From positions 1 to 64,000 of IMG/VR virus record IMGVR_UViG_3300028920_002946: DNA of 64,000 nt; one strand, given 5' to 3'. The stretch is from a virus. The stretch's first letter is position 1, and every line of letters begins with the position of its first letter. Shown here in pieces: positions 1 through 17,222 of the stretch. The position numbers and the translations under genes are program-made. The notes under the pieces were generated by a model. That model was not told the DNA's origin. It saw nothing but the letters and a program-made list of their open reading frames with translations, and made no database searches.

Positions 1-1197
1 CGAGGAACTCTGGCTCGTGATGTTCGACAGTCCCGAATCCCAATTCCCGTCATCCGCGCTCGCATCCGAACTCGCGTTGTTGTTCCCCGTCGCCGCGTCT
101 ATCTGGTCAAAGTCGGAATCGTTATCGAATCCGGCGTTGTTCTTGAGAGTGGCCGCCTGGATACCGCAATCCAGCCCGCAATAACAGTTATATGCCGTGC
201 AGTTCTCCACGCGCGAGGCTGCCGCCCCGGCCGTGAGGTAGAGAAAGATGCCGCCTTGTGCTATCCCGCCTTGGTCCCACACGGCGCAGTCGTGTATCTG
301 GTGCGACCCGTTTGTGGTCCCGGTGCAGATCCCGGTTCCTTTCTTCCCGTTCTTGTCTATGAGGCAGTTGTAAACCTTGAACAGGTAGCCGGTGGTCGGG
401 GTGGCCCCTGTAGTGACAGAATGGTAGTTGCTCGTCAGCGAGTATTGGGTGTAGACATACATGTCACGGAAGACAAATTGGCCGCTACCCTCCATATCGC
501 AGCTGAACATGAAGCCGTTGAAGTTGTGCGCGACCCGGTAGGTCGTGTCCGTCGGATCCCCGTAGTTCGGCTTCTCGGAGTAGGTGTTGAAAATGTTCCC
601 GTTCAAGTCCTCGGTGACGGCGGCCGTCGCGGTCTCCGTGGTCGACCCCTTGCCGACGTAGTTGAGGGTCCCGTTGAGGTCGCCCGTGTCCGAGTAGGCG
701 GCGCTCCACGTGGTGTAGTCCTGCCCGCTCCCCACATAGTAGGTCCCCGAGGTGCGCAGGTTGAAGTCCTTCACGCCCCTCCCGGCGTAGCCGTCGGCAT
801 CGTTGAAGATCGACGTGGTGAGGCCGTGGCCGCGCACGTCCAGAAGATCGACCGACTCGCCGCTGCGGAGGCTGGACTCCAGGCCGGCGATGCCCGTGGC
901 CGTCTCGAGCGCGGGCAGGTCGATGTACGCCGACCTCTCGCGCTTCACCACCCAGCCGGGCATGTTCTCCGCGTCCGGCTGGGACGCCTCCGGCACGGGC
1001 AGGAGAGCCTGCTGCACGGCGGGTTTCCAACTCGAGGGGGCGCGGAGGTACAGGTAGGGCACGCGGGCCTGCGGCGGGTACTCGGGCTGGAAGCCCCACT
1101 CGTCCGGGTCGATGTAGCAGACGGGCATCCCGTCCTTGATGCCGCGCGCGGCCTTCTTGTCCCCGACCTTCACGATTATGTCGATGTAGTCCGCCAT
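1..1197 (-). CDS. Beta-helix-like tail fibre/spike protein, 3' end cut by window
   Basis: The frame is open for all 399 codons from an ATG at 1197 down to base 1 with no stop, so the C-terminus lies outside the window. After about 120 N-terminal residues there is a Gly/Asn/Thr-rich stretch with recurring Asn-Cys steps (YNCLID, HDCAVWD, ENCTAYNC, KNNAGFD), the pattern of a right-handed parallel beta-helix, and it resembles the helix domains of the next genes upstream. It lacks their YVNT-AGGDGTTNAT cap; instead it opens MADYIDIIVK. Its start lies 2 nt after the preceding stop. Role inferred: receptor-binding spike or fibre, last of the adhesin array seen here. The start is supported by its position; enzymatic activity cannot be judged. 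Confidence 0.8.
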   Translation of the reverse strand, partial: MADYIDIIVKVGDKKAARGIKDGMPVCYIDPDEWGFQPEYPPQARVPYLYLRAPSSWKPAVQQALLPVPEASQPDAENMPGWVVKRERSAYIDLPALETATGIAGLESSLRSGESVDLLDVRGHGLTTSIFNDADGYAGRGVKDFNLRTSGTYYVGSGQDYTTWSAAYSDTGDLNGTLNYVGKGSTTETATAAVTEDLNGNIFNTYSEKPNYGDPTDTTYRVAHNFNGFMFSCDMEGSGQFVFRDMYVYTQYSLTSNYHSVTTGATPTTGYLFKVYNCLIDKNGKKGTGICTGTTNGSHQIHDCAVWDQGGIAQGGIFLYLTAGAAASRVENCTAYNCYCGLDCGIQAATLKNNAGFDNDSDFDQIDAATGNNNASSDASADDGNWDSGLSNITSQSSS

Positions 1198-1199
1198 GC

Positions 1200-1919
1200 T
1201 CAGCTCTTGTTGAAGTCGAACGAGAGGGAGGCGTTGGTGATGCTCTGCGACCCGTCTACCTCGACCCGCATTATCTCGCCCTTGCCCATCGATGTCGTGT
1301 CCCAATCCGAGATGTCCAAGTCCTGGTTTTTGATGCCGTTGACGATGTGCGGCCCGGTGAGCCCCGGGTGCATCTTGGAGGATGGCGGGAAGGCCGCGTA
1401 GGTGCCCTTGTAGATGTTGAAGTAGATGGTGCCCGTCTCCTCCGCCAGCACGGTCCAGTTCTGGAGCGTCAAGTCGAACGGCGCCCTGATATTGCCTTTC
1501 GTGCCGGACGATATGGCGCTCGAGCCGCCCTCGACGATGATGTTCATGGTGCCCGTGTAGCCGCCCTCGATGCCCCGGACGCCGGTGGCGCCGGATCCCG
1601 TCACGCCCACCGGGCCGGTCTCGCCCTGCGACCCCGTGAATCCGGCCTCTCCGGTGGCCCCCTGCGGCCCCGTCGCACCTTGGTCGCCCGTTATGCCGCC
1701 CTGCCCGGTGATGCCCTGGTAGCCGGTCAGCCCGAAGGTCCCGGTGTCCCCGGCGAGCCCCGTCAACCCCAGCGGGCCCGTTTCCCCCTGCGGTCCCGTG
1801 ACGCCCGAGACGGGGAATCCCACCTTGACCCACTTGTCGTCGGCCTCCGAGTATTGGTAGCGGGAGCCGTACGTCGTCTGATACTGCTCGCCGTTTGCCG
1901 GGCCGGTCGGAAATGCCAT
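1200..1919 (-). CDS. Collagen-like tail fibre protein with C-terminal head domain
   Basis: 239 aa. Residues 1-37 form a small domain (MAFPTGPANGEQY... DDKWVKVG), followed by Gly-X-Y repeats at about 38-120, many of the form G-x-T, typical of bacterial and phage collagen triple helices that lack hydroxyproline. Residues 121-239 are a globular head shared with the proteins at 5789, 3115 and 6470; shared signatures are TGPHI, DLSDW/DISDW and a C-terminal VTVSL-like strand. The architecture implies a homotrimeric fibre with a distal adhesive head. It starts at ATG 1919 in a 132-nt gap that carries one copy of the recurrent palindrome. Fibre role is from family knowledge; receptor unknown. Confidence 0.85.
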   Translation of the reverse strand: MAFPTGPANGEQYQTTYGSRYQYSEADDKWVKVGFPVSGVTGPQGETGPLGLTGLAGDTGTFGLTGYQGITGQGGITGDQGATGPQGATGEAGFTGSQGETGPVGVTGSGATGVRGIEGGYTGTMNIIVEGGSSAISSGTKGNIRAPFDLTLQNWTVLAEETGTIYFNIYKGTYAAFPPSSKMHPGLTGPHIVNGIKNQDLDISDWDTTSMGKGEIMRVEVDGSQSITNASLSFDFNKS

Positions 1920-1973
1920 TTCAGTCTCCCTGACTCTGCCAAAAGGTGCCGGGAAGGCGTCATCGACGCTCGG

Positions 1974-1994
1974 GGTGCGCCTTTCGGTGCACCG
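1974..1994 (-). other. Small hairpin in leader of collagen fibre gene
   Basis: The minus strand reads GGTGCACC-GAAA-GGCGCACC, an 8-bp stem with one A-C mismatch and a GNRA-type GAAA loop, between the palindrome and the start codon at 1919. No T-tract follows, so it is not a typical terminator. It may stabilise the leader RNA. Confidence 0.3.
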
Positions 1995-2012
1995 TACACG
2001 TTGGCTCCAGCA

Positions 2013-2027
2013 ATTAATAGACTATCA
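2013..2027. promoter_or_regulatory. Intergenic palindrome TAATAGNCTATTA, copy 1
   Basis: The plus strand reads ATTAATAGACTATCA, one mismatch from the perfect dyad TAATAG-N-CTATTA. It sits in the 132-nt gap after the stop at 2052 and about 95 nt upstream of the collagen-fibre start at 1919. It is one of at least seven copies, all in gaps upstream of minus-strand genes. Probably a promoter element or operator; not tested. Confidence 0.55.
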
Positions 2028-2051
2028 GGCTTTTCGGGGCGGCAGGGGGGT

Positions 2052-3104
2052 TTACACCAATCCGCTCTGTGTGCTCGCGGCGCCGAACCCCATCTTCGCC
2101 TTGTGGAACGAATATTGAAACGGCCCCGCGTCGCACACCAGGCCGTGCCTGTAGGCGCTGCGCATGCCGTCCACGGGGACGTTCGAGTCCGACGCGGGGC
2201 CTACCCCCGCCTTGATCAGCACCGAACCCGGCTTGAGGCGGAAGTCGCCGTCCTCCAGATAGTTGGGGTTGAGAAACTCGTTTCCCCAATCGCTGACCGG
2301 TATTGGATTCGTTCCGTCACCGTCATCGGAGGCGCAGTGGTCTATGACAACATTAGTTTCACCGACATGAATCCTGAAGTCATCACTACTGAAATAGAAA
2401 ACACTACAATTCTTAATCGTTACATTGCTTTGGTTAATCCAGAAGCCATACCCGCCCCCAGTAAGAATGTTGTTGTAGAAGAAAGCGGGTGTGTCATTGG
2501 ATGAGTTCAAATAAACAGGTGTAACAGTTCCTCCTGAACCACCATAGGACTGCATGACGTTATCATGGAAATACCATTTTCCTCCACTTGGGCTACCTGT
2601 GAGGAAGTCTTCTGTGCCTCCGTCCTTCGCCATTCTGAAGATACAGTTCTTGACCTCACAACCATCGATCCAGTTACCCGTCCATTGGAATAGTTCGTAC
2701 CGATTGTTGGTCATCGTAACTTGAAGGCCATCAAACACTATTCTGATCGGCTTCGTATCTGACCCGCCACATCCGAGAGCTATGTTTGAATTGTTGACAT
2801 TCAACCGATAGGTGCTGTCGTTCCAATGTCCTCCATGAAACCCGTCGGGTTCGGATCGATTCGCTTGGATAGTCAAGGTATAGCCAGAGCCGTCGAAGTA
2901 ATTCCAACCAGGGTCCCAATCCACTCGGTATTCGTCCTCGACCGACCCGCAACATAGCAGAAGGATGTCACTATCGTATAGTTTGTTGCGGAGGTTGTTC
3001 TCCGCCTGCGTCATCGTCGCAAAGGCACGATGGTCGCCTGTGGTGGCGTTGGTAGTACCGTCACCACCTGCAGTCGATGCTGTATTGACGTACCTGGTTA
3101 CCAC
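2052..3104 (-). CDS. Beta-helix tail fibre/adhesin protein (cap family)
   Basis: 350 aa from a GTG start at 3104; an AGAGG-type ribosome site lies upstream and the encoded start MVTRYVNTAS matches its paralogues. Residues 1-35 form the conserved cap (YVNTASTAGGDGTTNAT... RAFATM). Residues 60-270 show beta-helix rungs with IKNC, DGCEVKNC and DHCAS steps. The C-terminal module (DWGNEFLNPNYLEDGDFRLKPG) closes the helix. It is a close paralogue of 4729-5778, with long identical stretches and clustered differences. The central part is visibly more AT-rich than the flanks. Likely a trimeric receptor-binding or depolymerase-type spike; no catalytic residues can be assigned by eye. Confidence 0.85.
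   Translation of the reverse strand: MVTRYVNTASTAGGDGTTNATTGDHRAFATMTQAENNLRNKLYDSDILLLCCGSVEDEYRVDWDPGWNYFDGSGYTLTIQANRSEPDGFHGGHWNDSTYRLNVNNSNIALGCGGSDTKPIRIVFDGLQVTMTNNRYELFQWTGNWIDGCEVKNCIFRMAKDGGTEDFLTGSPSGGKWYFHDNVMQSYGGSGGTVTPVYLNSSNDTPAFFYNNILTGGGYGFWINQSNVTIKNCSVFYFSSDDFRIHVGETNVVIDHCASDDGDGTNPIPVSDWGNEFLNPNYLEDGDFRLKPGSVLIKAGVGPASDSNVPVDGMRSAYRHGLVCDAGPFQYSFHKAKMGFGAASTQSGLV
2114..2201. repeat. Direct repeat copy A (88 bp, identical to 4791-4878)
   Basis: The 88 bases here are identical to 4791-4878. Both encode the C-terminal closing module of the two beta-helix paralogues. Exact identity inside otherwise diverged genes implies recent duplication or gene conversion. Confidence 0.9.
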
Positions 3105-3114
3105 GTACTAGCCT

Positions 3115-4725
3115 CTACGTTTGGTGGCAGCCCAACGCCACCGTGACGCTCTCGGGGGAGTCCGACTCAATGACATTCAGCTGCATCCAATCCCCCGCCG
3201 CGCCGGTCGTCCCGGCCCAACCCGACAAATCGTAGTCGGCGTTCCTGAAAGCCTGTCCGATGTGCGGGCCCGTCGCCGACCCGTTCATGGAGAATGACGG
3301 GGGCCACGCGCTGAACGGGCCTATCCTCAAATCGGTGCGGATCGTCGTGCCGTCGCTCGACACCATCTCCCATGAATCGATCTGCAGATCATACGGCACC
3401 TGCAGCTGGCCCCCGATGCCGGTCGAGGGGTTGTTCATGACGAAGTTGAGGAAACCCGTCACCCCCGGGTCGGGGCCGGTCACGCCCTGCGGCCCCGTCA
3501 CGCCCGCGAGGCCGGTTACCCCGACCGGGCCTGTGGATCCGAAGGTCCCGACACCGGTCTCGCCCGTGGGTCCGGTGGGTCCCGGCACTCCCGTGTCCCC
3601 CGGCACTCCCGTGTCCCCTTGGACGCCGGGCACCGAAGCCCCGGTCGCCCCCGCCTGACCCGTCTCGCCCTTGCCGAGCGTGTCGGACTTCATCCAAACG
3701 CTGCGGTCGGAGTGGTAGACGTACAGGCTGCCGCTGGCCGTGCGGTGCTCCTGGCCGTCGTACGGGTCGGACGGGAAGGAGTAGTTCGGCACCGGGTTCT
3801 CGAAGGGCCCTATTGACGCTGTGCCGCCGGATCTGGCGTCCCCGACGATGTCGTCCGCGGGGACATCGGGGTCGGCGGAGGGCCCGATGCCGGCACCCTC
3901 GAGGTCGGAGCCGGATGCCAGCCTGTAGTCGATGCTCGCCACGTAGTCGGGGTTGTGGAACTGCTCGCCCCAATCCGATATGGTGACCGGGTTCGACCCC
4001 TCCCCGTTGGGCGTCGCGCAGTGGTCGACGACGACGCCCGTCCCGGAGAACACGCCCGCGTCGATTCTCGCGCAGTTCGTGACGTAGACGGTCCCGCTAA
4101 AGCGGGCCACCGGGTACGCCCAATTCACGAAGACGCAGTTCACCACGGATATGCCGCTGGCGTTAACCTGCACGCCGTTTGAACTGTTCGGCGTGTCCAC
4201 TTGGAAGACGCAGTTTTCGACATCGACGGCCCCGAAGTGGTCGTACCCCTTGATATTGACTGTTCGTACTATGCAGTTCCTGATCTTCGACCCAGAGAGC
4301 GCATTCGACCCGAAGGAGATGGCATGCCGGGTGTCGTTCTCCTGATATATCTGTATGCCCTCGACGATGAATATCCTGGAGGTGCCGTACGCGTTCTCGA
4401 TGCACGCCTTGCTGGACGTGTCGCATTGGATCCGATAGCGGTCGGTGCTCCAGACGCCGTCGTGCGCTCCGTTGGTGTCGTCCGGGTTGCCCCTGATGGC
4501 CATGGAGTAGGCGGCGTCGGTCGTCCACGATCCCCAGTTGTTGGCGTTCACCGTGTCGGCGGCCGCGCCGCAGCAGAGCACCTGCACGTCGTCCGAGACG
4601 GGAGACGAGTTGAGGGCCGTCATGGCCTCCATCAACGTGGCCCACGCACGGTTCCCGCCGCTGGTGGCGTTCGTGGTGCCGTCACCGCCCGCTGTACTCG
4701 CTGTGTTGACGTACTTGGTTATCAT
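3115..4725 (-). CDS. Fused beta-helix + collagen + head tail fibre protein
   Basis: 536 aa. Residues 1-310 are a beta-helix with the family cap (MITKYVNTASTAGGDGTTNAT) and closing module (GPSADPDVPADDIVG, GPFENP). Residues 312-350 (SFPSDPYDGQEH... RSVWMKS) match the N-terminal domain of the stand-alone collagen proteins. Gly-X-Y repeats run about 353-422 and the shared TGPHI-type head occupies 423-536. It therefore looks like an exact in-frame fusion of a helix-only gene and a collagen-only gene. Its ATG follows the preceding stop by 3 nt. Likely a receptor-binding fibre. Confidence 0.87.
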   Translation of the reverse strand: MITKYVNTASTAGGDGTTNATSGGNRAWATLMEAMTALNSSPVSDDVQVLCCGAAADTVNANNWGSWTTDAAYSMAIRGNPDDTNGAHDGVWSTDRYRIQCDTSSKACIENAYGTSRIFIVEGIQIYQENDTRHAISFGSNALSGSKIRNCIVRTVNIKGYDHFGAVDVENCVFQVDTPNSSNGVQVNASGISVVNCVFVNWAYPVARFSGTVYVTNCARIDAGVFSGTGVVVDHCATPNGEGSNPVTISDWGEQFHNPDYVASIDYRLASGSDLEGAGIGPSADPDVPADDIVGDARSGGTASIGPFENPVPNYSFPSDPYDGQEHRTASGSLYVYHSDRSVWMKSDTLGKGETGQAGATGASVPGVQGDTGVPGDTGVPGPTGPTGETGVGTFGSTGPVGVTGLAGVTGPQGVTGPDPGVTGFLNFVMNNPSTGIGGQLQVPYDLQIDSWEMVSSDGTTIRTDLRIGPFSAWPPSFSMNGSATGPHIGQAFRNADYDLSGWAGTTGAAGDWMQLNVIESDSPESVTVALGCHQT

Positions 4726-4728
4726 CTC

Positions 4729-5778
4729 TTACACCAATCCGCTCTGTGTGTTCGCCCCCGGAAAACCCGTCTTCGCCTTATGGAAAGAGTATTGAAACGG
4801 CCCCGCGTCGCACACCAGGCCGTGCCTGTAGGCGCTGCGCATGCCGTCCACGGGGACGTTCGAGTCCGACGCGGGGCCGACCCCGGCCTTGATCAGCACC
4901 GAGCCCGGCTTGAGCCGGAAGTCGCCGTCCTCCAGATAATTGGGGTTGAGGAACTCGTCGCCCCAATCGCTGACTGATATTGGATTCGTTCCGTAACCGT
5001 CATCGGAGGCGCAGCGGTCTACGACAACATTAGTTTGACCAACGGCGACTCTAATGTCCTCGCCAAATCCGAAAACAGTACAATTCTTGATAGTCACATT
5101 ACTCTGATATACACTGATCCCACGCCAACCTCTGGTTATAAGGTTGTTGTAGAAGTAAACAGGTGTGTCATTGGTTGAGTTCAAATAAACACTCTGGACA
5201 AGTCCTCCTGAACCACCATAGGACTGCACGACGTTATCATGGAAATACCATTTTCCTCCGCTTGGGCTACCTGAGATGAAATATTCATCGCCACCATCCA
5301 TCGCCATTCTGAAGATACAGTTCTTGACCTCGCAACCATCGATCCAATTACCCGTCCATTGAAACAGAACAAATCGATTGTTGGTCATCGTAACTTGAAG
5401 GCCATCAAACACTATTCTGATCGGCTTCGTATCCGACCCATTAAGAGGCATAGCTAAATTTGAGTCATTGACATTCAACCGATAGGTGCTGTCGTTCCAA
5501 TGCCCTCCATGGAACCCGTCGGGTTCGGATCGATTCGCTTGGATAGTCAGAGTATAGCCAGGGCCGTCGAAATAGTTGTAATCAGGGTCCCAATCCACTC
5601 GATATTCGTCCTCGACCGACCCGCAACAGAGCAGTAAGAGGTCAGAGTTGAACTGTTTGTTGCGAAGAGTACTTTCCGCCTGATCCATCGTTGCAAAGGC
5701 GCGGTGATCTCCAATGGTGGCGTTCGTGGTACCGTCACCGCCCGCTGTACTCGCTGTGTTGACGTATCTCGTTATCAT
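4729..5778 (-). CDS. Beta-helix tail fibre/adhesin protein, paralogue of 2052-3104
   Basis: 349 aa; ATG at 5778 preceded by AAGGGGAT, a good ribosome site. It shares the cap, rung pattern and C-terminal module with the protein at 2052-3104. Long blocks are unchanged (VEDEYRVDWDP, IQANRSEPDGFHGGHWN, KPIRIVFDGLQVTMTNN) while short patches differ, for example FYNNLITRGWRGISVY versus FYNNILTGGGYGFWIN. This fits a conserved scaffold with variable solvent-facing loops. A 10-nt gap separates it from the upstream collagen gene. Receptor binding is inferred. Confidence 0.85.
   Translation of the reverse strand: MITRYVNTASTAGGDGTTNATIGDHRAFATMDQAESTLRNKQFNSDLLLLCCGSVEDEYRVDWDPDYNYFDGPGYTLTIQANRSEPDGFHGGHWNDSTYRLNVNDSNLAMPLNGSDTKPIRIVFDGLQVTMTNNRFVLFQWTGNWIDGCEVKNCIFRMAMDGGDEYFISGSPSGGKWYFHDNVVQSYGGSGGLVQSVYLNSTNDTPVYFYNNLITRGWRGISVYQSNVTIKNCTVFGFGEDIRVAVGQTNVVVDRCASDDGYGTNPISVSDWGDEFLNPNYLEDGDFRLKPGSVLIKAGVGPASDSNVPVDGMRSAYRHGLVCDAGPFQYSFHKAKTGFPGANTQSGLV
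4791..4878. repeat. Direct repeat copy B (88 bp, identical to 2114-2201)
   Basis: Second copy of the exact 88-bp repeat, in the 3' part of the paralogous helix gene. The two copies lie about 2.7 kb apart in the same orientation and could mediate deletion or exchange of the intervening fibre genes. Confidence 0.9.
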
Positions 5779-5788
5779 GCCTATCCCC

Positions 5789-6466
5789 TTAAAGCGTCCG
5801 CGAGTACCCGAGGGACACGGTTACACTCTTGATGCCCGTGGCGCCCTGGATCAGGAACTGCACATAGTCCCCGGCCCCCACCGAGACATCTGACCAATCC
5901 GAGAGATCCGTGGCCTGTCCCTTAGTGCCTCCCGTGATGTGCGGCCCCGTCGCACCGGAGTTCATGGTCGCGATGCCGGGCCAATCGGAGTACGGCCCGC
6001 TCTTGACATCCGACCAAAAGAATCCCGTTTCCCGCGAAACCGCCTCCCACGAGTCGAGATCCATCTTGCATGGCACTTTCACGCTCGCCTGGAACCCCGG
6101 CGCGAGGTAGTCGCCGTTCCCGTCGAACGTCATGCCGAGGACACCCGTCGCCGACCCATAGTAGCCCTGCGGCCCGGCCGGGGAGTATCCCGTCTCGCCC
6201 TGCGGCCCGGCGACACCCGTCGCGCCCGGACCACCCGTGGGGCCGGCGGCGCCCTGCGGGCCGTCGATTCCCGTGGCGCCCTGGTCGCCCGTCGGGCCCT
6301 GCGGGCCTGTGGGGCTTTGCGGGCCGGTCGCCCCGCGCAGCCCGGCCTCGCCCCGCAGCTCGGTGCCGTATTTCACCCATCGGTTGCGGTCGGAGCGGTA
6401 GACGTACCTCGACCCGTACTTCGTGGTGTGCGTCTGCCCGTCGTTCGGCCCTGTAGGGAATGCCAT
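5789..6466 (-). CDS. Collagen-like tail fibre protein with C-terminal head domain
   Basis: 225 aa, same plan as the protein at 1200-1919: N-terminal domain [13 protein letters not shown]... RNRWVKYG, Gly-X-Y repeats at about residues 40-108, then the TGPHI/DLSDW head ending [11 protein letters not shown]. It lies between a fused helix-collagen gene and a helix-only gene. The stop is 3 nt before the next-downstream ribosome site. Predicted trimeric fibre; receptor unknown. Confidence 0.85.
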
Positions 6467-6469
6467 GCT

Positions 6470-8140
6470 CTATCTCTTCTCGTAGTGCTTCAGGGAAATT
6501 GACGCCTGTCTGACATCTGACTCGAGAACGTTCACGTGCAGATACTCGCCAAACGCCCCCGTGGTGCCCGACCAATTGGAAAGATCCGACGAACTATCCT
6601 TGAACCCGTCGATGACGTGCGGGCCGGTGTCCCCCGCGTTCATGAGCGCCGCGGAGGCCCAACCGTCGTACGTGCCGCGCGAAAGCTCGGTGACGAACGT
6701 CCCCGTTTCCGGCAGCACCGTCTCCCACGCCCCGATCATAAGATCGTACGGCAGCCTCATCTGCGATCGGTATCCAACCTGTATGGAGGTGTCGCCCCCG
6801 TCGAACGAGAACTGTAGGATCCCCGTGACGCCCGGCGGGACGCCGAGCTCCCCCCGGACTCCCCCGGTGCCATCAAGCCCGGTTTCGCCCTGCATCCCCG
6901 TGGCGCCGTCAAGGGCGGCGCCGGTCAGTCCCTTTTCCCCCTGCACCCCCTGCGCGCCCGTCACGCCTTGGACCCCTTGGACGCCCACCTCCGGCGCCCC
7001 GGTCGCGCCCTCCCCCCCGGTCGCGCCCGCGTTGGATCCCTGCGCCAGGCTGTACTTCACGTAGTGCTTGGACGGCGAGCAATCCGTCAGCCAGGACTGC
7101 CCGAACGATGACGTGTGCAGATCGCCGTCGGTGCAGGTGGGGTATTGGTTCTCAAACGGTCCGACGCTCGCCGTGCCGCCCGACCTCGACTCCCCGACGA
7201 TGTCGTCCGCGGGGACGTCCGAGTCCGCGGAAGGCCCGACCCCGGCGTCCCTGAGGTGCGAACCGAGAGACATCCTGTAGTCGAGATCCGCCGTGTAGCT
7301 CGCGTTGTAGAACTCGTCGTCCCAATCCGATATGGAAACGGGGTTAGTGCCCTCGCCGTCGTCTGCGGCGTTGTGATCTACCGTGGAGGGTCCGGACAGG
7401 CTCAAATCGTCACTGCAGTTGAGGATTGAGCTGTTCTTAATCGTTGCCGTGCAGTCGCTGTGGGTGTAAATCCCCGTGCTCAATGAGTCCAGCACGTTGT
7501 TGTAGAAGTCCAAGCGGATAGTGCCCCCGGCGGTGCTGATGCCCTGTCCCGCATTCGACACATACAAATTCGTGAAGACGTTGTTGCGCACCACCATCGT
7601 TGCGTTGAGGTTGGCCGCATCCTCCGCGCGAAAACAGCTATAATTCGTGACGTTGTTGCTCCACTTGAACAGCGTCTTTTCGCACGAGCTTCCGTCCGAC
7701 AGCCTCGTGAACGTTATTCCGTAGGCGCCTCCCCCTGCCGTCCTCGAACACAGGACTTGGACGCCCTCCACATGATATTCTCTGGATTGGTAGCTGTCCC
7801 TGTGGCAGTTGAAATAGATGCCGTACTGCGAGTTGGCGTTGTCGAAGGTGTACTTCGAGTCGTCCCAAACGCCCCCATGCGCCCCGTTCGCGTCATCGGG
7901 GTTGCCCCTGACGGTGAGGCTGTACCCCGATTGGATCGTCCCCGGGCGGAATTGGGGAATCGAAGAGTCAACGGCATCGCCGCAGCACAGAACCTCATAG
8001 TCATCGTTTACGGGCTGCGCCGCGCGTATCTGCTCCTCCGCCTCCTGCAGGGTCGCGAAAGCACGGTTCGCCCCCGACGTGGCGTTCGTGGTGCCGTCAC
8101 CGCCCGCGCTGCTCGCCGTGTTCACGTATCTCGTTACCAT
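6470..8140 (-). CDS. Fused beta-helix + collagen + head tail fibre protein
   Basis: 556 aa, second fused architecture. Residues 1-325 form the helix with the MVTRYVNTASSAGGDGTTNAT cap, internal rungs (VRNNVF, DFYNNVL, IKNSSILNC) and closing module (DVPADDIVGESRSGG). Residues 330-367 match the collagen-protein N-domain, Gly-X-Y repeats run about 368-443, and the head spans 446-556 (TGPHV, SSDLSNW). ATG at 8140. Its 5' end and upstream flank are repeated nearly exactly at 10205-10327. Likely receptor-binding fibre. Confidence 0.87.
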   Translation of the reverse strand: MVTRYVNTASSAGGDGTTNATSGANRAFATLQEAEEQIRAAQPVNDDYEVLCCGDAVDSSIPQFRPGTIQSGYSLTVRGNPDDANGAHGGVWDDSKYTFDNANSQYGIYFNCHRDSYQSREYHVEGVQVLCSRTAGGGAYGITFTRLSDGSSCEKTLFKWSNNVTNYSCFRAEDAANLNATMVVRNNVFTNLYVSNAGQGISTAGGTIRLDFYNNVLDSLSTGIYTHSDCTATIKNSSILNCSDDLSLSGPSTVDHNAADDGEGTNPVSISDWDDEFYNASYTADLDYRMSLGSHLRDAGVGPSADSDVPADDIVGESRSGGTASVGPFENQYPTCTDGDLHTSSFGQSWLTDCSPSKHYVKYSLAQGSNAGATGGEGATGAPEVGVQGVQGVTGAQGVQGEKGLTGAALDGATGMQGETGLDGTGGVRGELGVPPGVTGILQFSFDGGDTSIQVGYRSQMRLPYDLMIGAWETVLPETGTFVTELSRGTYDGWASAALMNAGDTGPHVIDGFKDSSSDLSNWSGTTGAFGEYLHVNVLESDVRQASISLKHYEKR

Positions 8141-8182
8141 GTGCTAAAGCTCTCCCCTAGAAATCCGCCCCGAACCATATGG
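8062..8182. repeat. Cassette-flanking direct repeat, left copy
   Basis: About 121 bp covering the 5' end of the fused fibre gene, its leader and the last codons of the next gene upstream (encoding WFGADF). It matches 10205-10327 with few differences, one of them a C-tract of 5 here versus 6 there on the plus strand. The pair flanks the propeller-helix gene and the short relic. Confidence 0.88.
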
Positions 8183-10070
8183 TGTTTGGGGGGATAGGGT
8201 ATTGGTTCTCAAACGGTCCGACACTTGCCGTTGCGCCAGAGCGCGTATCGCCAACGATATCGTCCGTGGGGACGTCCGAGTCCACGGAGGGCCCGACCCC
8301 GGCGTCCCTGAGGTGCGAACCGAGAGACATCCTGTAGTCGAAATCCACCGTGTAGTTCGGGTTGTAGAACTCGTCGTCCCAATTTGATATGGATACAGGG
8401 TTAGTGCCGTTTCCGTCATCGGAGGCGCAGTGGTCAACCGTCCCGCCTGCGAAATCAGTGGTATTGTCAAACACGATGCTGTTTTTAACCGTGTATGTTC
8501 CTATATTGAACCCCTTGACGAAACCACGAACCAAACTGTTGTACATGGTGCAGCCACCGACGACACCGGCCCCCGACAAGGGGGGAGTACCTCCAAAGGC
8601 GAGCACACTATTTGTAATCTTGAGAACGCTCAACGCTTGATTCCAAGCGACGGCAGTATCGTTGCTTGTCCTCCCTGACGGTATCACCAAGATGCTCTTG
8701 TCTACAGTCACGTTGCATACGGATCCGACATCGATGTGAAATGGGGTCATATTGGCCGTGGCATAGATTTGAAGAGAAAGGACTGTCACCTGAGACAGGA
8801 CATCCGAAACCCGTATGCCTTCACCGTAAGTTACGTCTTGAATCTTGGTATACTTGCTGGCATCATACACACCGCTGTTGTTTGCTCCGTTACTCACTGC
8901 AGGGTTTCCTCTGACCGTGAATGACACCCCTGTTTCAGTATATGAGAGAAGGTCAACTGTCGAACTGTCCTGCACCGATCCACAGCAAAGAATCTCAAGG
9001 TTCTCGTCTGACCCACAATAGGCAAGCTGGTCTGTGGCTTCTCCCAATGAGGCATAAGCACGGTCGTCCCCTGTGGCGGCGTTCGTAATACCTGTCCCGC
9101 CCGCTGTGCTTCCCGTGTTCACATAAAAGGTCGTCGCTGACGAATAGTCCCCAAGATAGAGTCTTCCCCCCAACACCCCGGTCATCCACTTCGAGGCATC
9201 AGCGGAAATGGCGCAGCAGTATCTCCAATCCGAAGCCGCCGTCTTACCGGGGCGAATCTGACACCAGGTGCTCCCCGAATCAAAGGATCGGTACACATAC
9301 CCGCCCCCGTAGATCTGGAGCATAATGTCCGAACCGTCCGACGATATAGCGCATCCGTGCCAATTCTTGTTCCCTGCTCCCGCTGGTTCCACCGCGGACC
9401 AGTCTGCCCCGGAGTTGTATGAGATGTAGGATCCACCACCGATTTCGATGGCTACGATTGTCGCACCATCATCGGACATTGCAAATCCCTGCCACGTGCC
9501 CGTTGTGTTCCCCTTCGGCTGCACCTCATCCCAATCAGTACCGTAGTTTGAGGAGTAGTAGCAACGGCTCCCATATCCTCCCACAATGACTCTTGACCCA
9601 TCCCCGGAAGCCGCCATACGTCCTGCGCTGTGAACATTTGACCATGAAGATCCGGAATTTCCAGAGTACCACAAATTGCCGCCGGTTTCAGATATGTAAA
9701 GCTTTGTGCCATCATTGGAAAGAGCACAGTAGCTGTAGTTGTAGTTCTTGTCCCCTGCGGGGCGGACCTCGGACCAACTTGAACCGGAATTTGATGTGTA
9801 CCACAAACGGCCATTGTACGCCGTCACCAACATCTTCGTTCCGTCTGAGGACATGGAAGCCCAGAACCATCCGCGGGCGACTGCGTCGTTGTAGGGATCC
9901 GTTGTTCCCCACGAAGACCCACCATCCGAGGAGTAGTACAGATAGCCGCTGGCGGACAACCCGCCTGCCCCGGCAAGGATGCATCCACCGTCATCGGAAA
10001 TGGCGCTGACGTACCAATTGTTGTTGGACGCCCCGCTTGGTTGAGTTTCTGACCATTTAACTAATGCCAC
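8157..10070 (-). CDS. Asp-box beta-propeller fused to beta-helix adhesin
   Basis: I place the start at GTG 10070, not at the in-frame ATG 10097, because a perfect AAGGAGG lies 9 nt upstream of the GTG; this gives 637 aa. Residues 1-305 carry six Asp-box repeats (SSDGGSSW, TSNSGSSW, SGNSGSSW, SSNYGTDW, SYNSGADW, SFDSGSTW) spaced by about 45-50 residues, indicating a BNR/sialidase-type propeller. From about residue 315 the helix family cap recurs in altered form (YVNTGSTAGGTGITNAAT), followed by rungs and the closing module. Asp-boxes are structural, so sialidase activity is not implied. The start overlaps the relic ORF upstream by 14 nt. Likely carbohydrate-binding adhesin. Confidence 0.82.
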   Translation of the reverse strand: MALVKWSETQPSGASNNNWYVSAISDDGGCILAGAGGLSASGYLYYSSDGGSSWGTTDPYNDAVARGWFWASMSSDGTKMLVTAYNGRLWYTSNSGSSWSEVRPAGDKNYNYSYCALSNDGTKLYISETGGNLWYSGNSGSSWSNVHSAGRMAASGDGSRVIVGGYGSRCYYSSNYGTDWDEVQPKGNTTGTWQGFAMSDDGATIVAIEIGGGSYISYNSGADWSAVEPAGAGNKNWHGCAISSDGSDIMLQIYGGGYVYRSFDSGSTWCQIRPGKTAASDWRYCCAISADASKWMTGVLGGRLYLGDYSSATTFYVNTGSTAGGTGITNAATGDDRAYASLGEATDQLAYCGSDENLEILCCGSVQDSSTVDLLSYTETGVSFTVRGNPAVSNGANNSGVYDASKYTKIQDVTYGEGIRVSDVLSQVTVLSLQIYATANMTPFHIDVGSVCNVTVDKSILVIPSGRTSNDTAVAWNQALSVLKITNSVLAFGGTPPLSGAGVVGGCTMYNSLVRGFVKGFNIGTYTVKNSIVFDNTTDFAGGTVDHCASDDGNGTNPVSISNWDDEFYNPNYTVDFDYRMSLGSHLRDAGVGPSVDSDVPTDDIVGDTRSGATASVGPFENQYPIPPNTIWFGADF

Positions 10071-10284
10071 AGGACCAACCCTCCTTGTAGCACCCATACA
10101 TCCCCGATGCCGCGCAGTTTTCCGAGATGTAATCGTACATGTCGGCGGTCACGGTGCCGCCCGATTGTATCACGGCAAAGCCGTGCCCGACCGAACTCGA
10201 CAAGCACGGTTCGCCCCCCGATGTGGCGTTCGTGGTGCCGTCACCGCCCGCGCTGCTCGCCGTGTTCACGTATCTCGTTACCAT
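10057..10284 (-). pseudogene. Truncated helix-cap relic (75 aa), probably frameshifted
   Basis: The first 23 residues are the family cap MVTRYVNTASSAGGDGTTNATSG, then the sequence departs (GEPCLSSSVGHGF...) and stops after 75 aa with no rungs or head. Compared with 6470-8140, a run of five Gs on the minus strand has become six, shifting the frame exactly where the proteins diverge; removing one G restores ANRA but soon meets a stop. The ORF has a normal ribosome site (GGGGGAGAG) and its end overlaps the propeller gene, so it may be translated and couple translation downstream. Most likely a recombination relic; a functional small protein cannot be excluded. Confidence 0.6.
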
Positions 10285-10327
10285 GTGCTAAAACTCTCCC
10301 CCTAGAAATCCGCCCCGAACCATATGG
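10205..10327. repeat. Cassette-flanking direct repeat, right copy
   Basis: Right copy of the repeat at 8062-8182. It covers the 5' end of the relic ORF, its leader and the last codons (WFGADF) of the LamG gene. Recombination between the copies would remove about 2.1 kb carrying the propeller-helix gene and the relic, leaving both neighbours intact. Confidence 0.88.
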
Positions 10328-11363
10328 CATTGGGGGGCGCGGTATATTCACCAGAGGATGCGAAACTTGCGGCGTTCTTTTGATTCTCATACTCGGTGGC
10401 GATCTCTTCGTCGCTCATCACGTGGTCCATGACAACCAGTTCGTCAACCCTACCGTTTAGGTATAGTTGGCTTGAACCGGATCGGCTGTATTTGCCGATA
10501 AATACCGTGGCACTCTCATCAGAAGACATCCCTAAGTCACCAAACCACTTCCCGTTATCGACCGAGTTCGACCAAAAGGATAAGGTTTTCTTCACTCCGT
10601 TTATGTACATGTTGTACGAATCGCCGTCAGAGGTCAGCGCAATGTGAAAAAACTCATCCTCCGTTGGTACGTAATCCGAATATCCAAGTATGTAGTTACC
10701 TCCAAACGCACCGTCAACTAAGCGCCATACGAAATACATATTGTAATTATTGACGGTATTATAGGCTAGATAAAAGTAAACGCTTGTGGAGTTCATTTTT
10801 GTCAGAATAAAAATCGCACCGGGCACTACTGTGTTGTAGCGGACCCACGCCTTGATCGTGCCCCGGTCACTCGTGAGGTGCTGGCGAAGATCGGGAACCT
10901 CAACGAAACCGTCCCCTGCAAACTCCACAGCATCATTTATCTGGCCCTCAGCTTCCGAGGCGTTTGTGAGCGAGCTTGCCTCATCGTTCGATGAGGAGTC
11001 CGATGCTCCGCTGTCTACATCCTGATAGTGGTGTACGAGCTGGGCGTCCCTGGCATCCCACACCCCCACATCGTTGGACCTTTCATCCCCTCCGTAATGG
11101 CACAGTATAGCCGTATCCTTCGTGGAGGATACTGAAGGTATGTTGACCCATGCCTCCACCTTCTCGGAGTCGCTGTCGAACAGGACTATTTCACGGTCAA
11201 GTTCAGTAACATTTGCAGAGTCGTAGAACCTGATGCCCTGCTTTGTCCCGGCCCAGAAATCATCAGGGATCCCAAGCATCTCCTCATTGAAGAGAAAGGC
11301 GTAATTGGTCAGATTGCCCGACACCTTCGTGTGGTCAATCGTTATTTGAAATATAGAACTCAT
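10302..11363 (-). CDS. DUF2341 + LamG-like lectin domain adhesin
   Basis: 353 aa. Residues 1-95 match the DUF2341 pattern (NYAFLFNEE, GIRFYDSANVTELDREI, VEAWVNIPSV, ILCHYG). Residues 145-335 look like a concanavalin-A/LamG jelly roll (VEFAGDGFVEVPD, TIKAWVRYN, FFHIALTSDGDSYNMYING, GRVDELVVMDHVMSDEEI). The C-terminal WFGADF tail is the same as that of the propeller-helix protein, probably because the shared repeat runs through both gene ends. This pair of domains is common in surface and fibre proteins that bind carbohydrate. The coding sequence is more AT-rich than neighbours, suggesting separate origin. Role as lectin-type adhesin is inferred. Confidence 0.85.
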   Translation of the reverse strand: MSSIFQITIDHTKVSGNLTNYAFLFNEEMLGIPDDFWAGTKQGIRFYDSANVTELDREIVLFDSDSEKVEAWVNIPSVSSTKDTAILCHYGGDERSNDVGVWDARDAQLVHHYQDVDSGASDSSSNDEASSLTNASEAEGQINDAVEFAGDGFVEVPDLRQHLTSDRGTIKAWVRYNTVVPGAIFILTKMNSTSVYFYLAYNTVNNYNMYFVWRLVDGAFGGNYILGYSDYVPTEDEFFHIALTSDGDSYNMYINGVKKTLSFWSNSVDNGKWFGDLGMSSDESATVFIGKYSRSGSSQLYLNGRVDELVVMDHVMSDEEIATEYENQKNAASFASSGEYTAPPNAIWFGADF

Positions 11364-11394
11364 CTTTACGCCCTAGAAATATTGCCCATACCAA

Positions 11395-13851
<2,457 letters not shown>

Positions 13852-13865
13852 TTGGCCGCCCTCAC

Positions 13866-14594
13866 TTATACCGTGTCCTGGACGTTGTCCTCAGAGTCGT
13901 CCACGGTGTCGATCCACGTGTCCATGCTGCTGTCCACCACGTCCTGAACGTACGAGGCCAGGCTACTCTGGTACGCCGGGACGGAACTGCCCTCGGGCCC
14001 CTTCACCCCCGTGGCCCCCTGCACCGCGAACCCTCCAAGGCCCGTGTGGCCGCGCGGGCCGGTCAGCCCCATATAGCCGGTCAAGCCGCCGCCCCCGGTG
14101 ACCCCCGGGAAGCCCGTGGACCCCCTTGGGCCCGTCGCGCCCCTCGCCCCGCGAAGGGTGAAGTTGCCGTACCCCCTGTACACCTCGATGTCCCCGGCCG
14201 TGACCGGGAGCATCGCGCTCAAGTCCTCCGACCCGTCGTGGCGCAGCCTCACCAGCATCAGCGGCAGCATCCCCGACAAATCCGGGAAGGTCTTCACGAC
14301 GCCGAAGCTGCGCCTGTTCATCGCTATGCTCGGCACCACCTCCACGGCGCCGGCCTCGTCGAGGCAGACCAGCACGTACATCACGTCGCCGCGGTTGTTG
14401 AACACCCGGCGCGACGACGCCGCCATCCGGGCCGCGACCGCACGCGGTATGTCGATGCGGACATCCCCGTACCGCACCCAATGGTCGCCGACGACCACCA
14501 TGCCGCCCTTGGCTGACGCGGTGTCTTCGGCGCGGAGGGAGTCGTCTCTGACCTTAAGGCCGAAATCCCTCTTGTTCTTGGGTATTATCGCCAT
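13866..14594 (-). CDS. Short collagen-like fibre with virion-anchor domain
   Basis: 242 aa. Residues 1-150 form an anchor domain shared with the next two collagen fibres upstream; common elements are a GxVVVxxxWVxY strand, [18 protein letters not shown], a PL(M/V) strand, a DGSEDL turn and YRGYGNF. Gly-X-Y repeats run about 151-205, and an acidic tail ([16 protein letters not shown]) ends the protein. It starts at ATG 14594, 36 nt after the preceding stop, with a palindrome copy in between. Likely a short fibre or connector; no obvious receptor-binding head. Confidence 0.82.
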
Positions 14595-15298: not shown

Positions 15299-16003
15299 CT
15301 AGTCGAAGATCAGAGACGGCCCCGCCGGCCGCCGGAACCCGTTCTCGCCCGGCGACGAGCCGGACTGCACGTAGCACCTGACGCCGTTCGGGAGTATGTT
15401 GGTCAAACAGTCGCCCACCTTGGGCATGTGGGCGAGTATCTCGTCGACCTGCGGCGGCGCGATGTCGTACGTGTACAGCGTGGCCTCGCCCTGCACCACC
15501 GTTATGTAGGCCGCCTTCGCCTCCGTGTCCTGCCTCCCCACGGCGTTCGTGACCAGGAGCGTGACGGTGTACGTCCCCGGCTGGTCGTAGACGTGCGTCG
15601 GGCTCTCCAGCGTGGACGTGCGGCCGTCGCCAAACGTCCAGAGCCACGAGACGATGGGGTTCGACGACGTGCTGGTGTCCGTGAACTTCACGCTCAGGGG
15701 GGTGTAGCCCGTCACCTTGTTGGCCGAGAAGTCGGCGACCGGCGTGTCAGCGTAGACATCGATGTAGTCGATCTTGGTCTCGTCGTCGCTGCCGTCGGCG
15801 TTGAACGAGTCCAAGGTGACGGTGTACGTCCCCGCGCCCGTGTACGTGTGATACGGGTTCTGCTCCACGCCCGTGGGGCTTCCATCCCCGTAGTCCCAAT
15901 ACCACCCGGTCGGGGAGTTGGTGGAGAGGTCGATGAACGTGACGCCCAGCGGCTCTATGCCCGTTACTGGATAACCTTCAAAATCAGATATTGGTGCGGC
16001 CAT
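15299..16003 (-). CDS. Two-PKD-domain adhesin with unknown C-terminal domain
   Basis: 234 aa. Residues 1-85 and 88-170 are PKD domains, each with the signature WxWxxGDG...P.HxYxxxGxYTVTL (YWDYGDGSPTG / HTYTGAGTYTVTL; WLWTFGDG / HVYDQPGTYTVTL). The last 65 residues (PPQVDEILAHMPKVGDC... GPSLIFD) are unassigned. PKD domains are Ig-like modules of surface and secreted proteins and probably aid attachment or extend the fibre. A 93-nt AT-rich gap precedes it; the ATG at 16003 follows AGGGGTAGGA. Confidence 0.85.
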   Translation of the reverse strand: MAAPISDFEGYPVTGIEPLGVTFIDLSTNSPTGWYWDYGDGSPTGVEQNPYHTYTGAGTYTVTLDSFNADGSDDETKIDYIDVYADTPVADFSANKVTGYTPLSVKFTDTSTSSNPIVSWLWTFGDGRTSTLESPTHVYDQPGTYTVTLLVTNAVGRQDTEAKAAYITVVQGEATLYTYDIAPPQVDEILAHMPKVGDCLTNILPNGVRCYVQSGSSPGENGFRRPAGPSLIFD

Positions 16004-16096
16004 TCCTACCCCTGTTATACATCTATTGACCCTTGAATCTAGTCATCTATCTAATGCCATATATTCAAAAAATTCAATATATTAGAAATATTATAG
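16004..16096 (-). promoter_or_regulatory. AT-rich intergenic segment, probable promoter region
   Basis: 93 nt of strongly AT-rich DNA in an otherwise GC-rich module. The minus strand contains TATAAT just after the upstream stop, two TTGAAT repeats separated by TTT, and at 16079-16093 a weak relative of the recurrent palindrome (ATATTAGAAATATTA). No convincing -35 box at standard spacing from TATAAT. A promoter for the PKD and short-fibre genes downstream is likely, exact start unknown. Confidence 0.45.
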
Positions 16097-16567
16097 CTAT
16101 TCATTCTTCCGGATCTTCGAACCCAACTCGACGTTGTAGTTCCCGTACGCCCCATAGACATGGGACGGCCCCGTCGCGCAGGAGTGCAGCGAGGCGTCGC
16201 CGAAGTCCCAATCCCAATCGTAGAACTCGTACCCCGTGGGCGCGGAACTCGTGTTTGTGAACGAGGCCGTCACCGGGGGTTCGCTCTCCTCATTGTAGGA
16301 GGCCGAGAAGGAGAGTTCGCCCACCCGTATCCAAGCGCGCATTATCACCGACGAACTGGACCCGCCCGGGGCGTAGGCGGTCACGACAACCGTGTGATAT
16401 CCCGCGGTCGTGTAGACGTGCGTGGGATTCTGGACGGCGCTCGTGGCACCGTCTCCGAAATCCCACACGTACGAAAGCCACGTGCCGGACAGGACGGTGA
16501 CGCCGAAGTTCACCGTAAGCGGGGCCGCCCCCAACACCACATCCGCCGTAGGTCGTATGTCTGCCAT
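16097..16567 (-). CDS. PKD-domain adhesin (two PKD-like repeats)
   Basis: 156 aa. The first PKD domain (residues 5-80) has YVWDFGDGATSAVQNP and THVYTTAGYHTVVVTA; the second (about 85-150) has YDWDWDFGDASLHSC and HVYGAYGNYNVEL and ends abruptly in SKIRKNE. The abrupt end one strand early may mean C-terminal truncation. The frame ends at a TAG inside the AT-rich gap. Ten nt separate its start from the upstream stop. Confidence 0.82.
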   Translation of the reverse strand: MADIRPTADVVLGAAPLTVNFGVTVLSGTWLSYVWDFGDGATSAVQNPTHVYTTAGYHTVVVTAYAPGGSSSSVIMRAWIRVGELSFSASYNEESEPPVTASFTNTSSAPTGYEFYDWDWDFGDASLHSCATGPSHVYGAYGNYNVELGSKIRKNE

Positions 16568-16577
16568 CGGCTATCAC

Positions 16578-17222
16578 CTAGTCAAGGACGCCCGCCATCG
16601 CGCGCGTCTCGTAGTAATACTCCCGCAAATCCCTGTCGCCGAGCCATATCTTGAACTCATCTATCTTCAGCGTGCTGTTCGGCGCGAGTCGGAAGACGTT
16701 CGAGTTCAGGGCCGGCGGGGATCCGTTCACGGACTTGGCCACGGACAGGGCGCGCCTGACCGTCGAGTAGGTGCCGGCGTACATCCCGTCCGCGCCCGCG
16801 TGGAACTCAACCAGGACCCACCGACCGACAGCCGTCACGGGATCGGCGGATCTGTGGACGTAGTTGTAGTCCTCGTACACGAGCCTGAGGTTGGAGTCGA
16901 GGCGGAATCTCCAATACTCCGTGTCGGAGTAGCTGACCCCCTCGGCTATGACGAAATCGGGTCGAGGATGGTTCTCGTTGACCACCACATAGCCCGATCT
17001 CGTCAAGGTGTCCTGCGACGAGGCGTCCTCGACCACCAACGTCACATCGTACTCACCGGGGAGATAGGTGTGGTTCACGGCCGTGAGGTTGCCGTCCACC
17101 GACGTTCCGTCGCCGAATATCCACTTGCGCGACACTATCGTGCCGACGGAGGCGTCGTTGAACGTAACGGTGACCAAGCCGTCGCCCACCCTGTTCGTCG
17201 CTGTGAACCCCGCTGTCGCCAT
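16578..17222 (-). CDS. PKD + LamG-like C-terminal domain adhesin
   Basis: 214 aa. Residues 1-80 are a PKD domain (RKWIFGDGTSVDGN, NHTYLPGEYDVTLVVEDASS). Residues 90-214 resemble the second half of a LamG/concanavalin-like fold (WVLVEFHAGADGMYAGTYS, LKIDEFKIWLGDRDLREYYYETR). It starts 9 nt after the upstream collagen-PKD gene. One of four consecutive or near-consecutive PKD-bearing genes. Binding role inferred. Confidence 0.8.
   Translation of the reverse strand: MATAGFTATNRVGDGLVTVTFNDASVGTIVSRKWIFGDGTSVDGNLTAVNHTYLPGEYDVTLVVEDASSQDTLTRSGYVVVNENHPRPDFVIAEGVSYSDTEYWRFRLDSNLRLVYEDYNYVHRSADPVTAVGRWVLVEFHAGADGMYAGTYSTVRRALSVAKSVNGSPPALNSNVFRLAPNSTLKIDEFKIWLGDRDLREYYYETRAMAGVLD

What the first reader, a model, noticed from the sequence alone, without database searches (positions are those of the whole stretch)
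8062..10327. Excisable 2.1-kb adhesin cassette between 120-bp direct repeats
The repeat at 8062-8182 recurs at 10205-10327, each spanning a fibre-gene start and the preceding gene's last codons. A single crossover would remove the propeller-helix gene plus the relic and leave the LamG gene and fused fibre intact. This gives a mechanism for reversible tropism change or cassette acquisition.
Basis: partly seen in the sequence, partly recalled or inferred. Interest (0 to 1): 0.6.

Follow-up and report, generated by a model that had tools for sequence, protein, structure and literature searches.

The report
Duplicated junction in phage fibre array
A virus of microbes carries a row of host-attachment genes built by copying and swapping parts at shared end pieces; the two repeats described are a scar of that process, and nothing found shows that the piece between them switches in and out.

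Summary
The repeat is real: 8056-8193 and 10198-10337 match at 132 of 140 columns, longest exact run 70 bp. Each copy joins the last codons of one gene to the start of the next. A 2,144-bp deletion between them leaves both outer genes open (in silico only).

The pair is one footprint among several in a tail-fibre array, not a dedicated excision device. Another pair in the array shares 89 bp exactly. A second repeat (7140-7384 / 8197-8441) shows that the cassette and the neighbouring fibre also share 3' caps. Cassette, LamG and two helix genes have third-position GC of 0.59-0.61, against 0.815-0.913 for the nine other genes measured, so they look imported. No serine resolvase, tyrosine integrase or reverse transcriptase was found in the 182,677-bp record.

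The array sits in a variable slot: relatives have it empty (3 of 6 loci, 2 of 4 lineages) or filled with other genes. A 3.4-kb contig binned with an archaeon has the same tail-peptide/start-cap junction upstream of the baseplate gene. Best reading: adhesin gain by duplication and homologous recombination at conserved junctions. Excision is possible; reversible switching is unsupported.

The parts
8056..8193 (-). Junction repeat, copy A: 3' tail of the propeller-helix gene (PPNTIWFGADF*), ribosome-site-like stretch, start cap of the fused fibre gene
10198..10337 (-). Junction repeat, copy B: 3' tail of the LamG gene (PPNAIWFGADF*), ribosome-site-like stretch, start cap of the relic
   Evidence: 132/140 identical to copy A, longest exact run 70 bp (8079/10223)
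7140..7384 (-). Helix C-cap of the fused fibre; other end of the shared unit
   Evidence: 212/245 identical to 8197-8441, spacing 1057; inner tract 7197-7326 at 94%
8197..8441 (-). Helix C-cap of the propeller-helix gene; meets the LamG-type tail at 8193/8197
10302..11363 (-). LamG / concanavalin-A-like fibre gene (353 aa), GC3 0.596
   Evidence: Pfam Laminin_G_3 1.6e-14; GC3
10057..10284 (-). Relic: frameshifted start cap (75-aa ORF) followed by ~100 bp of unmatched sequence
   Evidence: the 49 aa after the cap have no match in 61 other loci
8157..10070 (-). Propeller-helix gene (637 aa from GTG 10070; AAGGAGG at 10080-10086): seven-bladed propeller, right-handed beta helix, floppy C-terminal tail
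   Evidence: Sortilin-Vps10 3.5e-9; AlphaFold2 mean pLDDT 73; Foldseek YCF48 5ojp 9.7e-12; start site from sequence
6470..8140 (-). Fused fibre gene: helix + collagen-like stalk + C-terminal domain (556 aa), GC3 0.815
5789..6466 (-). Collagen-like + C-terminal-domain gene of the array
4729..5778 (-). Short helix gene, GC3 0.591 with high-GC3 C-cap
   Evidence: 84.8% DNA identity to 2052-3104
3115..4725 (-). Second fused helix + collagen-like + C-terminal-domain gene
2052..3104 (-). Short helix gene, GC3 0.607 with high-GC3 C-cap
1200..1919 (-). Collagen-like + C-terminal-domain gene of the array
11395..13851 (-). Long collagen-like fibre gene, first gene of the array
   Evidence: Pfam Collagen 1.4e-64; its first 70 aa match L069, 43% over 65 columns
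13866..14594 (-). Conserved gene at the upstream border of the adhesin slot
   Evidence: homologues in 6 of 6 loci, each upstream of the baseplate gene

Best explanation
The 2.1-kb piece is one unit of a tail-fibre (adhesin) array that occupies a variable slot between two conserved structural genes of a large contractile-tailed virus. The repeats are copies of a conserved junction module: C-terminal tail peptide, ribosome site, start cap of a beta-helix. I propose that a unit running from the LamG 3' end to the helix C-cap was duplicated in tandem, and that a foreign, lower-GC propeller-helix gene replaced the middle of one copy. On the 3' side it recombined within the conserved C-cap; on the 5' side it left a broken start cap (the relic) and brought its own ribosome site and GTG start. 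Shown: both repeat pairs, the frameshift, the in-frame fusions, the GC3 contrast, and the variable slot in relatives. Inferred: order of events, foreign donor, homologous recombination as the agent, adhesin function. Loss of the cassette by recombination between the 140-bp copies is mechanically possible but not shown, and no switch is indicated.
For: Two repeat pairs share the same two neighbouring units (8056-8193/10198-10337 and 7140-7384/8197-8441). F2 and the propeller-helix gene fall to 23-51% nucleotide identity per window in the helix body but reach 75-93% in the C-cap, with a 94% tract inside it (16 of 1000 permutations as extreme). GC3 is 0.59-0.61 for four adhesin genes and 0.815-0.913 for nine others; in the two short helix genes ends and body differ (Fisher 1e-5 and 2e-4). 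The slot is empty in L066, L067 and L068, holds 5.1 kb in L069, and one gene in L070/L071. L059 has the same tail/start-cap junction, alignable at DNA level. No resolvase, integrase or reverse transcriptase family match in the record, while controls matched.
Against: For the propeller-helix gene itself the GC3 contrast between C-cap and body is weak (p 0.02). The two repeat pairs differ in identity (94% and 87%), so a single duplication needs later conversion or two events. L059 already has the tail peptide on a helix gene, so that fusion may be older than this virus. No donor was found: propeller, LamG and relic have no match in 61 other loci, nor do the propeller and LamG proteins in IMG/VR by peptide pattern or in the phage collection. 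A metagenome assembly error at the repeat cannot be excluded.
Confidence: 0.7

Rival explanations
1. Reversible excision/duplication switch: recombination between the 140-bp copies regularly removes or restores the propeller-helix gene and changes host tropism.
For: Both product genes stay open after a 2,144-bp deletion. A 70-bp exact run is a plausible substrate for general recombination (established knowledge).
Against: No resolvase or integrase match. Copies have diverged at 8/140 columns. Other pairs in the array are as good or better substrates. No variant found, although no relative carries the array, so this is weak. Re-insertion needs a donor.
Confidence: 0.08
2. Whole-gene acquisition: the propeller-helix gene with its tail arrived intact from a related virus and recombined at the conserved junctions; no tandem duplication of the local unit took place.
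For: L059 shows that helix + WFGADF tail + start-cap junctions exist in another virus of the group. The slot differs between relatives. Foreign GC3.
Against: The two local junction copies are 94% identical but only about 75% alignable to L059. The C-cap shares a 94% tract with the neighbouring gene. This suggests local copying.
Confidence: 0.17
3. Assembly artefact: misjoined contig at repeated start caps.
For: Single metagenome-derived record; repeats of 70-140 bp; a homopolymer-length difference inside the repeat; the contig ends inside the array.
Against: Reading frames and ribosome sites are coherent on both sides, copies differ at 8 columns so they are not collapsed, and a similar junction exists in an independent contig.
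Confidence: 0.05

Closest known systems
Conserved DNA motifs flanking receptor-binding domains of lytic E. coli phages (Pas et al. 2023, PMC10408124; read: abstract and section 20)
   Same: Conserved stretches before and after a variable receptor-binding part, proposed as recombination hotspots for swapping it
   Different: There 44-, 95- and 20-nt motifs across genera; here a ~140-nt gene-end/gene-start junction duplicated inside one array
Tail-spike gene cluster of Ackermannviridae (Sorensen et al. 2024, PMC11414711; read: abstract, sections 10 and 11)
   Same: Several receptor-binding genes in a row; recombination between copies sharing a domain gave a chimera, or deletion of one gene and truncation of the next
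   Different: Engineered insertion in a cultured phage with known receptors; here sequence only, other folds (propeller, helix, LamG, collagen-like)
T-even distal tail-fibre locus, adhesin swapping between conserved motifs (recalled from memory, not read)
   Same: Adhesin specificity exchanged through short conserved motifs
   Different: Motifs inside one gene, not gene-to-gene junctions
Invertible fibre segments of Mu and P1 (recalled, not read)
   Same: Alternative fibre parts in one genome
   Different: Those use inverted sites and a serine invertase; here direct repeats and no resolvase-family match

Membership tests
Receptor-binding-protein mosaicism by recombination at conserved flanks | Conserved ends, divergent middle among related fibre genes | tested here: met
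   Caps 63-82% versus mostly 23-54% in body windows for nine of ten gene pairs; the 84.8% pair is the exception
Receptor-binding-protein mosaicism by recombination at conserved flanks | Different content at the same place in relatives | tested here: met
   Slot empty in 3 of 6 loci, filled with other genes in 3 of 6
Receptor-binding-protein mosaicism by recombination at conserved flanks | A donor virus with the same body | tested here: not met
   No match for propeller or LamG; a donor may simply be unsampled
Receptor-binding-protein mosaicism by recombination at conserved flanks | Genes bind host receptors | not testable with these tools
   Only domain resemblance
Site-specific excision/inversion system | Resolvase/invertase or tyrosine recombinase encoded | tested here: not met
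   0 matches in the record; controls matched in 10 and 14 of 14 genomes; the record may be incomplete
Site-specific excision/inversion system | Alternative states present in population or relatives | tested here: inconclusive
   No relative with the array; no read data
Diversity-generating retroelement | Reverse transcriptase encoded | tested here: not met
   RVT_1: 0 matches in the record; controls matched in 3 of 14 genomes

The most novel reading that the evidence does not exclude
The tail peptide (…IWFGADF*) plus ribosome site plus start cap (M[VI]TRYVNTAS…) is a dedicated plug-in port: a module kept by selection both as protein (a docking tail and a helix cap) and as DNA (a recombination target), into which this virus group loads adhesin genes at one slot next to the baseplate gene.
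Probability: 0.15. Interest if true: 0.55.

Novelty: new member of a known kind. Interest (0 to 1): 0.32.

Why it matters
It gives a readable record of how a large environmental virus adds attachment genes: copying of a gene-to-gene junction and replacement of gene bodies between conserved caps, at a defined genomic slot that is empty or differently filled in relatives. The principle is known from cultured phages; the slot, the tail/cap junction and the propeller-helix fusion were not matched to a described case in the six paper searches made here.

Tried and rejected
Close relatives of the cassette and of LamG: none in IMG/VR by peptide pattern, none in the phage collection for cassette, LamG or fused fibre. 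PHROGs gave collagen-type tail-fibre hits for the fused fibre only, and mostly nothing for neighbouring structural genes. Solved-structure sequence search: nothing for the cassette, a weak S-layer hit for LamG (4qvs), an unconvincing one for the helix profile.

The WFGADF* tail as a widespread tag: rejected. A scan of IMG/VR gave 2 stretches; in neither was the motif the end of a listed ORF of 100 aa or more, so I take them as chance. It was seen only in this record and in L059 (that scan preceded loci L060-L075).

Dedicated excision by a site-specific enzyme, and a diversity-generating retroelement: no family match in the record. Propeller search in records G001-G003: empty, and the tool warns that an empty answer without a positive control shows nothing. 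The baseplate gene next to the slot was not found in the window's own record, probably because the contig ends inside the array.

Population evidence: L070 and L071 are identical over 22,631 bp; L067 and L068 are 96.4% identical and both empty at the slot. Neither says anything on switching of this cassette.

Paper searches with all-terms filters returned no paper in two of six cases.

Full report
OBSERVATION. The window is bases 1-64,000 of a 182,677-bp virus record. The gene at 54480-57428 matches tail sheath proteins, best in an uncultured 485-kb phage record (LR745208, 31.5%) and in Tunturiibacter phage Tunturi_5, so this is a contractile-tailed virus. All fibre genes are on the minus strand. 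The repeat reported at 8062-8182 and 10205-10327 is real and runs from 8056 to 8193 and from 10198 to 10337; 132 of 140 aligned columns are identical and the longest exact run is 70 bp. In gene order each copy is: the last ~11 codons of a gene (PPNAIWFGADF* for LamG, PPNTIWFGADF* for the propeller-helix gene), a purine-rich ribosome-site-like stretch, and the start MVTRYVNTASSAGGDGTTNATSG. In the 10-kb copy the start is dead: an extra G in a G run shifts the frame, and ~100 bp later the propeller gene begins, most likely at GTG 10070 behind AAGGAGG (sequence; that this is a ribosome site is inference from the consensus). A script that removes 2,144 bp between the copies leaves LamG at 353 aa and the fused fibre at 556 aa. 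A crossover beyond the extra G would instead carry the frameshift into the fused fibre (inference from the alignment).

NOT A LONE PAIR. The start cap occurs at five places in the window by a degenerate motif. The longest exact direct repeat among the genes at 1-11,400 is another pair, 89 bp at 2113/4790; the cassette pair is second with 70 bp. Two short helix genes (2052-3104, 4729-5778) are 84.8% identical throughout. So general recombination could act at several places, and the cassette is not singled out.

WHAT THE PIECES ARE. The genes are a long collagen-like fibre (11395-13851), a LamG gene, the propeller-helix gene, a fused helix-collagen-C-terminal-domain gene (6470-8140) and further helix, fused and collagen genes down to the contig end. 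The propeller-helix protein was modelled from 19 sequences (5 window rows and 14 of the 36 loci): mean pLDDT 73, a propeller up to about residue 305, a helix domain from about 313 to 622 and a low-confidence tail 625-637. The propeller resembles YCF48 and other propellers (best 5ojp, E 9.7e-12). Receptor binding is inferred from domain type and position only.

HOW IT WAS BUILT. A second repeat pair, 7140-7384 with 8197-8441 (212 of 245), joins the same two units at their other end. The propeller-helix gene and the fused fibre are thus alike at both ends and unlike between: 23-51% nucleotide identity in body windows, 75-93% in the C-cap windows. Within the C-cap a 130-bp tract is 94% identical with lower flanks (16 of 1000 permutations as extreme). 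The LamG-type tail meets the helix C-cap at 8193/8197. Third-position GC is 0.607, 0.591, 0.613 and 0.596 for the two short helix genes, the propeller-helix gene and LamG, and 0.815-0.913 for the nine other genes measured. In the short helix genes the ends are higher than the body (Fisher 1e-5 and 2e-4); for the propeller-helix gene this contrast is weak (0.02), and the two fused genes show none (0.23 and 0.80). I read this as duplication of a native unit and import of lower-GC bodies between native caps. The order of events is inference, and the unequal identity of the two repeat pairs means that one duplication alone does not explain everything.

RELATIVES. Helix relatives: 36 loci from 147 matched stretches in IMG/VR. 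The start cap was found in 33 of these 36 at 61-85% identity (best copy), while the ten alignments longer than 300 columns have 27-34%; the search patterns lay in the cap, so cap conservation is partly built in. Two of 61 non-own loci hold two caps. One genome-collection hit is telling: L059, a 3,446-bp contig binned with a Candidatus Altiarchaeales archaeon (2 of 59 stretches confirmed), has a helix gene ending GTNTIWFGADF*, 8 bp, a helix gene starting MITRYVNTAS, then a large gene homologous to a baseplate-region gene of the relatives. The junction aligns with the window's at DNA level. I take it to be a viral contig (inference).

THE SLOT. That large gene has homologues in 6 IMG/VR loci (6 of 113 stretches), in four lineages (L067/L068 96.4% identical, L070/L071 identical). 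In all six, homologues of the window genes 14631 and 13866 lie upstream. Between the 13866 homologue and the large gene there are 17 bp in L066 and 3 bp in L067 and L068; 5.1 kb in L069 (a collagen-like gene whose start resembles the window's long collagen gene, other ORFs, and a 114-aa ORF with a short helix match, 45% over 42 aa); and one 627-aa gene in L070 and L071. In the window at least 13.8 kb of array follow the 13866 gene and the contig ends inside it; the large gene is not in the record. Hence adhesin genes are gained and lost at this slot over evolution. None of these relatives carries the propeller or LamG genes, so they cannot test excision of this cassette.

MECHANISM. No match to the resolvase (PF00239), phage integrase (PF00589) or reverse transcriptase (PF00078) families in the record; the controls matched. 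General homologous recombination acting on the caps and junctions is the simplest agent; its genes were not searched. Published parallels: conserved motifs around receptor-binding domains proposed as swap points (PMC10408124, section 20), and recombination or deletion among tail-spike genes sharing a domain (PMC11414711, sections 10-11).

VERDICT. Observation confirmed; acquisition supported; reversible switch unsupported. A new member of a known kind, with a well-defined slot and junction as the most interesting part.

Noticed in passing
L066-L071, between the homologues of window genes 13866-14594 and the L059 large gene: A variable adhesin slot next to a baseplate-region gene in large contractile-tailed viruses: empty in 3 of 6 loci, other genes in 3 of 6.
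   Followed up: partly
L069:5501-7707: ORFs in the slot of this relative whose starts look like glycosyltransferases (my reading of the sequence, no family search), placed between a collagen-like fibre gene and a further ORF.
   Followed up: no
L059:1-3446: Viral-looking contig with fibre and baseplate genes binned in a Candidatus Altiarchaeales genome; either mis-binned or a virus of that archaeon.
   Followed up: partly
L031:7953-10124 and L040:7995-13907: Two start caps within a single ORF each, i.e. tandem helix modules inside one protein.
   Followed up: no
window 15299-17222: Run of PKD-domain genes beside the array; similar PKD repeats are expanded in L009 and L022.
   Followed up: no
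window 18301-22716: 1,471-aa structural gene with segments that look like propeller blades (my reading of the sequence), conserved at 57-84% identity in L007, L008 and L009.
   Followed up: no
window 1-1181: Another helix-like fibre gene runs off the contig start; no match in 61 other loci.
   Followed up: no
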